From positions 1-57,601 of the forward strand of contig NZ_CANNCR010000026.1 of NCBI RefSeq assembly GCF_947503125.1: 57,601 nucleotides of DNA. The letters are read 5' to 3'. This stretch comes from an uncultured Metabacillus sp. GTDB taxonomy: Bacteria > Bacillota > Bacilli > Bacillales > Bacillaceae. The notes below the pieces were generated by a model. That model worked only from the letters and a program-made list of their open reading frames with translations, searched no databases and was not told the DNA's origin. A program made the position numbers and the translations under genes. Positions 54,769 through 56,943 of the stretch are shown in pieces (within the stretch, counting starts at the first letter, position 1; each line of letters starts with the position of its first letter).

Positions 54769-55161
54769 TTGGCACAGGTTCAATATTACGGTACTGGCCG
54801 TCGTAAAAGCTCTGTAGCGCGTGTACGTCTAGTTCCAGGCGAAGGCCGTATCGTTGTAAATAATCGTGATATTAAAGATTACATCCCATCAGCTGCTTTA
54901 ATCGAAGATATTAAACAACCATTAAACTTAACTGAAACTGCAGGAAGCTACGATGTACTTGTAAATGTTTCAGGTGGTGGATATGCAGGTCAAGCTGGCG
55001 CTATCCGTCACGGTATCTCTCGTGCTTTATTAGAAGCAGATCCAGAATACCGTCCATCACTTAAGCGTGCAGGCTTATTAACTCGTGACGCTCGTATGAA
55101 AGAACGTAAAAAATACGGTCTTAAAGGCGCTCGTCGTGCACCTCAGTTCTCAAAACGTTAA
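54769..55161 (+). CDS. rpsI: 30S ribosomal protein S9
   Basis: S9 reaches the P-site tRNA with its C-terminal arginine tail ([11 protein letters not shown]). The 130-residue protein begins at TTG ([15 protein letters not shown]) after AAAAGGAGG; no ATG fits. The last 67 bases (55096-55162) recur in decayed form at 56883-56943, which suggests that the 3' end was an integration target and was restored by the incoming element. Confidence 0.97.
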
Positions 55162-55175
55162 TTATCAACGTTTCG

Positions 55176-55212
55176 AAGGCTCTTTTCACTTATGTGGAAA
55201 GGGTCTTTTTTA
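55176..55212 (+). terminator. Terminator after rpsI
   Basis: AAGGCTCTTTTCAC (55176-55189) pairs with GTGGAAAGGGTCTT (55194-55207) with a few G-U pairs around TTAT, followed by TTTTTATT. Confidence 0.85.
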
Positions 55213-55243
55213 TTATTTTATTTCCACTATTATTAATACTATA

Positions 55244-55252
55244 TGGTAAAAT
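55244..55252 (+). promoter_or_regulatory. Candidate extended -10 promoter of the island operon
   Basis: TGGTAAAAT fits an extended -10 element (TGnTAAAAT). No clear -35 box lies 17 nt upstream. It is 41 nt before the gene at 55294. Confidence 0.4.
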
Positions 55253-55293
55253 ATTCTTATAAATAGAAATATAATCCAAAGGGGGATGTGCAT

Positions 55294-56505
55294 TTGAATA
55301 TTGATGTTACCAAAATTTTTATCAGTTCTTCCTCCCAGCAAACCCTTCAATCCCTAAGAGAAAGAATAAAAACTGCTTTAGAGAATGCTGGTCATGAAAC
55401 AGTTATGTATGAATATGGAGATATAGGGCTTTATACTGATGATCCAAACCAGGATTGTTTAGATAAGGTAAAAGATAGTGACGTACTTGTTTTATTCATA
55501 TCAAATAAAGCAGGTAGTCTAAGCCGTAGCAATCCTAATATTACGATTACATATGCAGAATTTATGACTGCGTTAAAGAATGATAAAATTGTTATACCGA
55601 TAGTGGAAACACAAATACTTAACTTCTATAAAGAACATATTAAGGATGAATTAGATAGAGCTATTAACAAGTTTGAAGAAGAACATGATCACGAACCAAG
55701 GTTCACTTTTCCAATTGTTAAAGCCCTATTGGAAGATCATAAAAATAGAGATTCTGTCTTACATAAAAAAATCGAGGGAATGTCTGTTGATGAATTTATT
55801 TGGGCATTTGTCCATGATTGTTATAAATTGACAAGATGGACTTATAATTACAACATAGCAGACACTCCTGATCTTTGTAACTTTCTATTAAAAGTATTAA
55901 GCCAAGTGTTAAGAAAAAGTACTAAATTTTATCTTCACGAAAAGGAAATTACACAAAACCTTGTGCTTTATGATGAACTTTCCGTGTATCAGGACTCTGT
56001 ATCTAATTTTATGAAGTGTATTATGAACTCAACACTCAATCTTCCGTTATTTTTTAAAACATTAACGAGTTATTTACCAAGTCAATCTATTTATGACTCT
56101 TACAGTGATTTTGCAGAACATCCTGAACCTATTGTGAATATATCTGAATGTAAAGCAATTACATTATATAAACGAAATAATGATGTCTTAACTTTAGTAG
56201 ATTCATACGGAAGTAATACTCCAACTCAGGAATTTAAAAAAGGCGATGAAGATTCATTTGTTGCTCAAACTTATAATAAAGATATGGAGCATCAAGAACA
56301 TATTTTTTACTCTGAAGATAAACAAATGATATATATGACAAAAAAAGTGGGAGAATTAGTTTTGTCTTGTCACTTCCAATTATCTGAGGCATGGTCAAGC
56401 CGCCGAGTTAACAGCTATGAAAGTGATATCGTTAGTGCTATAATGGATAAAAGGCAACCATTTGATTTTGCAATAGATCTTTTAGGAGGGATGTTAAATG
56501 AGTAA
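55294..56505 (+). CDS. DUF4062-type TIR-like protein with possible GAF-like C-terminal domain
   Basis: The 403-residue protein has an N-terminal DUF4062/TIR-like domain: the first strand KIFISSSS (7-14), the strand SDVLVLFIS (62-70) and YAEFMTALKNDKIVIPIV (87-104), where E89 sits where TIR-fold enzymes often have a catalytic glutamate. A helical middle (about 110-280) follows. The segment from about 289 (ITLYKRNNDVLTLVDSYG) to 370 has the strand pattern of a GAF domain. DUF4062 proteins occur in defence-like and signalling contexts. Enzymatic activity here is inference. The TTG at 55294 is chosen because AAAGGGGGA lies 7 nt upstream; GTG 55288 would be too close. It lies alone with a small overlapping gene between rpsI and its tail copy. 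Confidence 0.65.
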   Translation: MNIDVTKIFISSSSQQTLQSLRERIKTALENAGHETVMYEYGDIGLYTDDPNQDCLDKVKDSDVLVLFISNKAGSLSRSNPNITITYAEFMTALKNDKIVIPIVETQILNFYKEHIKDELDRAINKFEEEHDHEPRFTFPIVKALLEDHKNRDSVLHKKIEGMSVDEFIWAFVHDCYKLTRWTYNYNIADTPDLCNFLLKVLSQVLRKSTKFYLHEKEITQNLVLYDELSVYQDSVSNFMKCIMNSTLNLPLFFKTLTSYLPSQSIYDSYSDFAEHPEPIVNISECKAITLYKRNNDVLTLVDSYGSNTPTQEFKKGDEDSFVAQTYNKDMEHQEHIFYSEDKQMIYMTKKVGELVLSCHFQLSEAWSSRRVNSYESDIVSAIMDKRQPFDFAIDLLGGMLNE

Positions 56506-56662
56506 GGATAGTGCAGTTTATATTGGTTCCACTCCAAAGCATCTAACTCGTGTAGCTAAAGAAATGAATATGAGGAAAAATTCCGAAAACAATAGACGAT
56601 TACTTGAATCACTTGGATACAATGATAAATCAAATATACAAGGAAAAAAACTGGTGAAATAG
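56498..56662 (+). CDS. Small hypothetical protein, 54 residues, coupled to the DUF4062 gene
   Basis: The ATG at 56498 overlaps the stop of the upstream gene by 8 nt (ATGAGTAA), with AGGAGGGA 7 nt before it, so translation is likely coupled. The 54-residue product is basic and polar (many K, N and R; KHLTRVAKEMNMRKNSENNRRLLESLG), with no membrane segment. I recognise no family. It could be a partner, inhibitor or antitoxin-like protein of the DUF4062 protein, but nothing in the sequence proves that. Confidence 0.65.
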   Translation: MSKDSAVYIGSTPKHLTRVAKEMNMRKNSENNRRLLESLGYNDKSNIQGKKLVK

Positions 56663-56882
56663 TAACTGTGAAAAAAGTGTGAGATTTTATACTTTTTTAC
56701 TTCCTTCTATAAATAGAGCAGTCATGCCCTCATGGTTGGGTGCCATTAAAGCCTTGACCACAATTTGACCACCGAAGGTATATCATGAAATTTACTCTAC
56801 TTTATATAGAGTGGGCAAAAGCCGATAACTCGTGCCTTTAATAAATCATTTCTTATCTAGTTTCTCCATATTTTGTGTGGGC
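56663..56882. other. Non-coding tail of the island
   Basis: The 220-nt stretch after the small gene holds no convincing ORF. It contains the short hairpin ACTCTA/TAGAGT (about 56795-56813) and no clear terminator. I do not recognise any element. Confidence 0.4.
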
Positions 56883-56943
56883 ATGAAAGAACGTAAAAAA
56901 TACTTAAAGGCGCTCGTCGTGCACCAGTTCTCAAAACGTTAAT
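56883..56943 (+). repeat. Decayed copy of the rpsI 3' end
   Basis: This 61-nt stretch repeats the last 67 nt of rpsI (55096-55162), starting ATGAAAGAACGTAAAAAATAC and ending AAAACGTTAAT. It differs only by a 4-nt deletion (GGTC lost) and a 2-nt deletion (CACCTCAG to CACCAG), which shift the frame. It has no coding capacity. It is best read as the displaced old 3' end after an insertion into rpsI, or as one arm of a direct repeat flanking the island. Confidence 0.85.

What the first reader, a model, noticed from the sequence alone, without database searches (positions are those of the whole stretch)
55096..56943. Island between rpsI and a decayed copy of the rpsI 3' end
Seen: the last 67 nt of rpsI recur 1.7 kb downstream as a 61-nt copy with two small deletions, followed by its own terminator. 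Between the copies lie the rpsI terminator, a two-gene operon and a non-coding tail. Known: integrative elements often target the 3' ends of conserved genes and carry a copy of the end to restore them; rpsI has, as I recall, been reported as such a site in streptococci. Inference: a small integrative element, now without its recombinase, entered the rpsI 3' end; the downstream copy is the old tail and marks the ancestral junction.
Basis: partly seen in the sequence, partly recalled or inferred. Interest (0 to 1): 0.75.

Follow-up and report, generated by a model that had tools for sequence, protein, structure and literature searches.

The report
Fossil mobile island behind rpsI
A 1.8-kb remnant of a mobile DNA element sits in the end of a ribosomal protein gene, beside the left end of an older element of the same kind, and still holds a pair of genes that look like a phage-defence system.

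Summary
In detail: the last 67 nt of rpsI recur at 56883-56943 with a 4-nt and a 2-nt deletion and no substitution. The closest relative held (G016) is the empty site: its rpsI runs straight into the sequence that follows 56943. Other relatives carry elements at rpsI with a tyrosine integrase; their ends share 11-bp-spaced repeats (probable integrase arm sites) about 64/75 nt after rpsI and 123/112 nt before the displaced tail. The window keeps an element left terminator, a class-A right arm and right end, but no integrase or left arm. Correction: what follows the copy is not native chromosome but the left end of an older rpsI element, most likely class B, so this is a decayed tandem array. 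rpsI islands are known (Macrococcus, streptococci). The cargo is a DUF4062 (TIR-like NADase, 'Swarozyc') gene with an invariant Glu, overlapped by a small partner gene. Such a partner follows 23 of 23 full-length family members read (window included), its ribosome-binding site lying in the enzyme's near-terminal Gly-Gly codons. Two intact rpsI elements carry R-M or CBASS near the same end. Best reading: fossil rpsI island with a probably working two-gene defence system.

The parts
54769..55161 (+). rpsI (ribosomal protein S9), the target gene
   Evidence: ORF list; rplM-rpsI 98.2% to G016
55096..55162 (+). left core site: intact rpsI 3' end, read as supplied by the element (attL)
   Evidence: repeat search and alignment
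55163..55217 (+). element left end with terminator 55175-55208; arm repeats absent
   Evidence: 96% to the left ends of G012 (55 nt) and G020 (48 nt), both class A, but also 94% to class-C G026, so the terminator does not tell the class; terminator scan; no repeat
55288..56505 (+). DUF4062 protein (403 aa from 55294): N-terminal TIR-like domain with invariant E89; C-terminal half without Pfam match
   Evidence: PF13271 E 4e-11; E89 in 16 of 16 aligned sequences, window included; AF2 and Foldseek
56498..56662 (+). small partner gene (54 aa), 8-nt overlap; ribosome-binding site in the Gly-Gly codons of DUF4062; C-terminus shorter than in relatives, by eye from a 1-nt deletion
56752..56772 (+). 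class-A right-arm repeats CCTTGACCAC / ATTTGACCAC, 11 bp apart, -131/-120 from the displaced tail (2 and 1 mismatches)
   Evidence: weak 41-nt, 78% match to the G012 right end (E 0.06)
56861..56882 (+). right end just before the tail, shared with class-A elements
   Evidence: matches from 56861 through the tail in G020 (82%) and G019 (74%)
56883..56943 (+). displaced old rpsI 3' end (attR core), 4-nt and 2-nt deletions
56944..57023 (+). left end of an older rpsI element, most likely class B: terminator 56964-56993 and repeat TTTGAATACT at +71
   Evidence: tail included, 87% to G016, 81% to G001, 83% to the second element of G070; but class-A G050 also 80% over 121 nt; repeat
57272..57520 (-). 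C-terminal fragment of an IS21-type IstB ATPase near the contig end; not part of the island
   Evidence: PF01695 E 1e-24, profile 166-236 of 238

Best explanation
The island is the fossil of an integrative element that recombined, by a tyrosine integrase, into the last ~67 nt of rpsI. The element carried its own copy of that end, so rpsI stayed whole; the old end was pushed 1.79 kb downstream and has decayed by two deletions (shown by the anatomy and by the empty site in G016; which copy is new is inferred). The element lost its integrase and left arm, probably by a deletion right after its left terminator, and kept its right arm, right end and cargo (inferred from comparison with relatives that have these parts). 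It entered an rpsI end already occupied by an element of another arm class, whose left end follows the displaced tail (shown by alignment; class B is the likeliest label). The cargo is an operon of a DUF4062 TIR-like enzyme and a small overlapping gene. It most likely acts as a defence system: on infection the enzyme hydrolyses NAD+ and stops the cell, with the small protein as coupled regulator or sensor (inferred from DUF4062 biochemistry in print, the conserved Glu and the defence cargo of intact relatives).
For: Duplicated 67-nt end. Empty site in the closest relative held, 95.2% over 461 nt, no DUF4062 there. Elements from rpsI to a displaced tail with an integrase next to rpsI: G020 12 kb, G075 15.7 kb, G050 about 40 kb; integrases with PF00589+PF14659+PF14657. 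Repeats in 11-bp register at fixed places at element ends, classes A/B/C; 10 of 30 further integrase loci lie at rpsI and all 10 show 10-12-bp-spaced repeats there. Window: right arm and right end of class A. Single-tail genomes G003, G005, G006, G007, G011, G015, G017 and G025 match the joined flanks only to the end of the tail, G016, G001, G065 and G070 well beyond it, so what follows 56943 is element sequence. The same operon lies behind a class-A left end at rpsI in Bacillus sp. V3-13, inverted, 87% identical protein. Cargo of intact elements: type II R-M in G020, CBASS genes in G075. DUF4062 as TIR-like NADase in phage defence (PMC13174449: abstract, first part of Results, legends). dN/dS 0.095, 0.074, 0.043 in three pairs with the window, the last with saturated dS.
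Against: Left arm repeats are missing, and the two right-arm repeats have 2 and 1 mismatches. The terminators do not mark the class: the window's left terminator also fits class-C G026, and the stretch after the copy also fits class-A G050. G016's left end shows no repeat itself. Right arms were not found in G002, G004, G010, G016 and G037. The operon is not tied to rpsI: in Fredinandcohnia quinoae it lies elsewhere, in Cytobacillus purgationiresistens 1.1 kb from rpsI without arm repeats, and V3-13 shows no second tail. No integrase of this type in the own draft genome at E 1e-20, so present mobility is unlikely. Defence and NADase activity are untested; dN/dS may mostly reflect time before decay. 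The far end of the array is not assembled.
Confidence: 0.85

Rival explanations
1. Segmental duplication or gene conversion of the rpsI end, followed by capture of a resident two-gene operon, without any integrative element.
For: Only the last 67 nt are duplicated and no recombinase is present. In C. purgationiresistens the operon lies near rpsI without arm repeats.
Against: Right end and right-arm repeats at the expected distance; empty site with a precise junction; relatives with integrases at the same point.
Confidence: 0.04
2. A minimal element without an integrase, moved in trans by integrases of other rpsI elements (a CIME-like passenger), rather than the random remains of a larger element.
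For: Compact 1.8-kb size, right arm and both cores present, DUF4062 gene open. The same operon stands behind an integrase-less class-A left end in V3-13.
Against: Left arm repeats gone, right core damaged by two deletions; no helper integrase in the own draft genome at E 1e-20; V3-13 has the operon inverted and shows no second tail.
Confidence: 0.08
3. The operon is not a defence system but a stress- or ligand-sensing NAD enzyme kept for a host function.
For: Low dN/dS; weak likeness of the model to a GAF-type protein, free-methionine-R-sulfoxide reductase (E 0.03; the aligned part is not given).
Against: Patchy presence: 17 of 299 genomes of the order, 4 of 21 of the genus; 43 plasmid records; defence cargo in two intact elements.
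Confidence: 0.2

Closest known systems
McRImecD-1/-2 and McCI islands of Macrococcus caseolyticus (PMC5341023; abstract start and passages)
   Same: Insertion in the 3' end of rpsI, tyrosine integrase at the rpsI side, direct repeats with a 61-bp core att site, a composite island with a third repeat, one form lacking the right repeat. The paper reports distantly related integrases (up to 46% aa identity) next to rpsI in Bacillus.
   Different: The window island has no integrase, is 1.8 kb, and carries a DUF4062 operon. Arm-repeat classes do not appear in the passages I read.
Streptococcal ICEs at rpsI (PMC4701971, passages) and IMESag-rpsI (PMC5090054, listing and passages)
   Same: rpsI as integration site; for the ICEs, the 3' end and tyrosine integrases.
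   Different: Conjugation or mobilisation functions there; none seen here.
Swarozyc, DUF4062 TIR-like NADase defence (PMC13174449; abstract, first part of Results, legends, found passages)
   Same: N-terminal DUF4062 with a conserved Glu; spread between genera; defence neighbourhoods.
   Different: The C-terminal half has no Pfam match and is not shown to be the HTH/winged portal-binding domain of KpSwz. A small overlapping gene follows. The paper mentions operons with diverse enzymes; the terms downstream, small protein and two-gene brought up no such partner in its main text; supplements were not seen.

Membership tests
rpsI-3'-end integrative island | duplicated rpsI end flanking the insert | tested here: met
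rpsI-3'-end integrative island | empty site in a close relative | tested here: met
   G016
rpsI-3'-end integrative island | site-specific tyrosine integrase in the element | tested here: not met
   none in the window island or own draft genome at E 1e-20; present in G020, G050, G075, G026. Hence 'remnant of', not 'complete member'.
rpsI-3'-end integrative island | element-type ends with arm repeats | tested here: inconclusive
   right arm and right end present, left arm repeats absent
CIME (cis-mobilisable remnant) | both att cores without own recombination genes | tested here: met
   definition recalled
CIME (cis-mobilisable remnant) | movement in trans by a related integrase | not testable with these tools
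   needs an excision assay; damaged right core and missing left arm speak against it
Swarozyc / DUF4062 NADase | DUF4062 domain | tested here: met
   PF13271 in 16 of 16 aligned members
Swarozyc / DUF4062 NADase | catalytic Glu | tested here: met
   E89 invariant in 16 of 16; equivalence to KpSwz E97 is inferred, KpSwz was not aligned here
Swarozyc / DUF4062 NADase | TIR-like fold | tested here: met
   the only two hits under E 0.001 are TIR domains (E 2e-4), on a modest model (pLDDT 64.6, pTM 0.45)
Swarozyc / DUF4062 NADase | HTH/winged auxiliary domain that binds the phage portal | tested here: inconclusive
   no Pfam match above cut-off in the C-terminal half; weak GAF-type hits
Swarozyc / DUF4062 NADase | NADase activity and phage protection | not testable with these tools
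   bench work

The most novel reading that the evidence does not exclude
The cargo is a two-gene, translationally coupled form of TIR-like NADase immunity, seen here only in Bacillales: a DUF4062 enzyme with its own sensor half plus a fast-evolving small partner (often V-I/Y-x-x-S-x-P) that sets or senses its activity. It can travel on rpsI elements whose integrases share one core site but use at least four arm-repeat codes, which would let unrelated elements stack in one gene end without excising each other and so build a defence island.
Probability: 0.4. Interest if true: 0.7.

Novelty: new variant of a known kind. Interest (0 to 1): 0.5.

Why it matters
It shows, with an empty site and matching ends, how defence genes can accumulate behind an essential gene in Bacillales: elements with one core site enter in series, lose their integrases and leave cargo behind. 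It also gives a testable lead on a DUF4062 family with a small partner gene that is easily missed; in one plasmid record it is not in the (incomplete) gene table. If the partner is a regulator, it would explain how a cell-killing NADase is held off and would be a handle on its trigger.

Tried and rejected
Rfam: two matches in 55090-57601, both far below gathering scores, taken as chance. ARAGORN: no tRNA in the window, so no tRNA target. I first read the repeat at 56752-56772 as a remnant of an integrase C-terminus in a reverse frame; dropped, because in G020 the same repeat lies outside the integrase, between the rpsI terminator and the integrase stop. I tested whether arm class follows the arm-binding domain alone: mean within/between-class identity 0.65/0.41 for the arm domain, 0.71/0.51 for the core-binding part and 0.64/0.47 for the catalytic domain in 13 integrases; the difference is small, so domain swapping is not shown. 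First AlphaFold model (4 sequences) had pLDDT 47 and was not used; the second (5 sequences) 64.6. Its Foldseek list also holds hits that do not fit, Rag GTPase chains at E 0.0015 with 19 A rmsd and xylosidases at E 0.004. PDB sequence searches gave one hit, a TatB homologue at E 0.0025 to residues 207-295, taken as chance, and none for the profile. Four scans of viral contigs gave one DUF4062 relative, found twice; phage records none. A third tail was sought in the first 900 bases of contig C81: score 25 against a shuffled maximum of 30, so none seen. PADLOC gave only Cas6 at E 0.03 for the large gene, taken as chance, and nothing for the small one; NCBIfam nothing. Promoter scan: 5 sites against 9.9 expected, no use. 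Rows dropped: L116, L118, L119 (broken or partial DUF4062 genes) failed the partner-gene rule with the coordinates given and were left out of the count (21 of 24 before dropping); L164, a 97-residue match, was not counted. Of 43 plasmid records with a match, 4 were read.

Full report
Observation. rpsI ends at 55161, and its last 67 nt (55096-55162) return at 56883-56943 as 61 nt with a 4-nt and a 2-nt deletion and not one substitution. Homology stops on both sides. The alignment score is 104 against a maximum of 28 in 300 shuffles. Terminator-like hairpins lie at 55175-55208 and 56964-56993. Between the copies lie a 403-aa gene (from 55294) and a 54-aa gene that overlap by 8 nt.

Empty site. 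Among the regions I read, G016 is closest to the window in rplM-rpsI (98.2%; next 93.5%). Joining window 54769-55095 with 56883 onward gives a sequence that aligns to G016 at 95.2% over 461 nt. G016 has no DUF4062 match at E 0.001. So the island is an insertion at this point relative to the state kept in G016.

What lies right of the copy. The stretch after 56943 is not native downstream DNA. With the tail it aligns to the sequence behind rpsI in G016 (87% over 134 nt) and G001 (81% over 148) and behind the second tail of G070 (83% over 147). Single-tail genomes such as G003, G005, G007 and G017 match only to the end of the tail. G001 and the first element of G070 have integrase fragments right behind. 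A class-B repeat with one mismatch lies at +71. Against a strict class label: class-A G050 also aligns, 80% over 121 nt, and G016 shows no repeat itself. The array is therefore rpsI, class-A remnant, old tail, older remnant most likely of class B. The chromosomal right flank is on contig C81: its bases 588-850 and 790 onward match G016 behind its last tail; no further tail was found there.

A hot spot. In the genus, 20 of 21 genomes match the rpsI end and 10 of 21, own included, match it twice or more. In the order, 393 of 397 genomes match, and by my hand count of that listing 43, own included, have two matches, the most that was scored per genome; I did not check that each second match lies behind rpsI. 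Second copies in the elements read lie 1.1 to 40 kb from the first; three tail-like stretches lie far from rpsI (see passing notes).

Complete elements. G020 (12 kb), G075 (15.7 kb) and G050 (about 40 kb, with phage-like genes by eye) run from rpsI to a displaced tail and carry a 380-392-aa integrase next to rpsI; G026 has a 372-aa one in a region that I did not read to its end. All four integrases have PF00589, PF14659 and PF14657. The G020 integrase finds relatives at E 1e-60 in 29 of 299 genomes of the order, 31 matches. I read 30 of those: 10 have the rpsI end beside the integrase, one of them with stops (G284), and in 20 my pattern found none. The four with 71-74% identity are all at rpsI.

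End anatomy. In 22 regions scanned, short repeats, mostly in 11-bp register, recur at similar distances: left about +64/+75 (class B often +74/+85) after the stop, right about -123/-112 before the displaced tail. Class A is TTTTGACCAC, class B TTTGAATACC, class C AAACACCCAC. In the 10 further loci a script that looked for any repeat found class A in 5, B in 3 and a fourth class (TAACTCAC) in 2. Right arms were not found in G002, G004, G010, G016 and G037; G003, G005 and G007, which have a single tail, show no repeats. That these are integrase arm sites is inference from position, register and the arm-binding domain; it was not tested. The window has an element left terminator (96% to class-A G012 and G020, but also 94% to class-C G026), a class-A right arm at -131/-120 with 2 and 1 mismatches, and a right end shared with G020 (82%) and G019 (74%) from 56861 on. 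It lacks the left arm and the integrase. No integrase of this type is in the own draft genome at E 1e-20.

Cargo. The large gene is a DUF4062 protein (PF13271, E 4e-11; TIR_2 below its cut-off). E89 is invariant in 16 of 16 aligned sequences (window and 15 others of 26-90% identity), as are C286, H360 and W367 in the C-terminal half. A modest model (pLDDT 64.6, five sequences) has two Foldseek hits under E 0.001, both plant TIR chains; SARM1, TIR-STING and nucleoside deoxyribosyltransferases follow at E 0.0015-0.007, among hits that do not fit (Rag GTPases, xylosidases). GAF-type hits are weak (E 0.03), and the listing does not say which part they cover. A preprint reports that DUF4062 proteins are TIR-like NADases that protect against phage (PMC13174449; abstract, first part of Results, legends, found passages).

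The small partner. In 21 of 21 full-length members examined first, window included, the DUF4062 gene is followed by an ORF of 52-81 aa starting -11 to +2 nt from its stop codon, with a ribosome-binding-site match at the codons for the near-terminal Gly-Gly. Two more were then read: L162 fits the rule; L163 has a 92-aa ORF at +5, outside the preset limits but with the same motif. Thus 22 of 23 by rule and 23 of 23 by eye; three broken or partial genes were set aside, and several members are close to each other. The same rule fits 1 of 262 other long ORFs. The small proteins are divergent, mostly with V-I/Y-x-x-S-x-P; three have HVASG, and L112 and L117 deviate. The close partner is in 2 of 199 genomes of the order, own included. 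The invariant Gly-Gly may be kept for this ribosome-binding site (inference).

Spread. The DUF4062 gene or a piece of it is in 17 of 299 genomes of the order, 4 of 21 of the genus, 43 plasmid records at under 60% identity, 42 of Bacillus, and 0 phage records. In a sample of 398 genomes across the phylum, at the stricter E 1e-20, only the own genome matched; wider groups were not searched. Close relatives (78-90%) are in other genera: F. quinoae, Bacillus sp. V3-13, C. purgationiresistens, with a fragment in Bacillus sp. REN16. In V3-13 the operon is next to rpsI, inverted, behind a class-A left end with repeats at +64/+75/+94 and no integrase; its DNA is more alike to the window (83%) than the flanking core genes (68%), which points to horizontal transfer. 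In C. purgationiresistens it is 1.1 kb from rpsI without repeats, in F. quinoae elsewhere. dN/dS against the window is 0.095, 0.074 and 0.043, the last with saturated dS.

Function. Two intact elements carry known defence systems towards the displaced tail: two cytosine methyltransferases and a type II restriction enzyme in G020, 1.2 kb from the tail, and effector, cyclase, E1-E2 and JAB of a CBASS in G075, 0.2 kb from it. The window operon lies in the same end, 0.2 kb from the tail. I infer an NADase-based abortive defence, with the small protein as coupled regulator or sensor.

Known or new. Integration at rpsI is known in streptococci and in Macrococcus, where 61-bp cores, a composite island and distantly related integrases next to rpsI in Bacillus were reported (passages). 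Text searches for rpsI with Bacillus, prophage and attachment site, S9 with integrase and genomic island, and rpsI with arm-type showed in their listings no paper on the arm classes; the library lacks most subscription journals. The island itself is a decayed member of a known kind. The variant parts are the two-gene DUF4062 operon and the arm-repeat classes on one core.

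Noticed in passing
G058:C5:200159-200200, G030:C63:4445-4486, G032:C1:1422595-1422648: rpsI-tail-like stretches far from rpsI, in G058 and G030 with a shared upstream context; perhaps a secondary site or an element left elsewhere.
   Followed up: no
L092 (G075) 11533-16491: Type II CBASS gene set (effector, cyclase, E1-E2, JAB) at the right end of a 15.7-kb class-B rpsI element.
   Followed up: partly
L080 (G020) 9926-11233: A 435-aa EPSP-synthase-family (PF00275) gene inside the 12-kb rpsI element.
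   Followed up: no
L078 (G012) 7245-10895: Second element with a class-A repeat on the left and a class-B repeat on the right, as if two elements had fused by loss of the tail between them.
   Followed up: no
window 57272-57520: IS21-type IstB fragment near the contig end, a possible cause of the assembly break.
   Followed up: partly
L101 7497-7781: Short tandem repeats between rpsI and the DUF4062 operon in C. purgationiresistens.
   Followed up: no
window 56663-56700: The operon's terminator hairpin, perfect by eye in F. quinoae, looks partly decayed in the window and is not found by the scan.
   Followed up: partly
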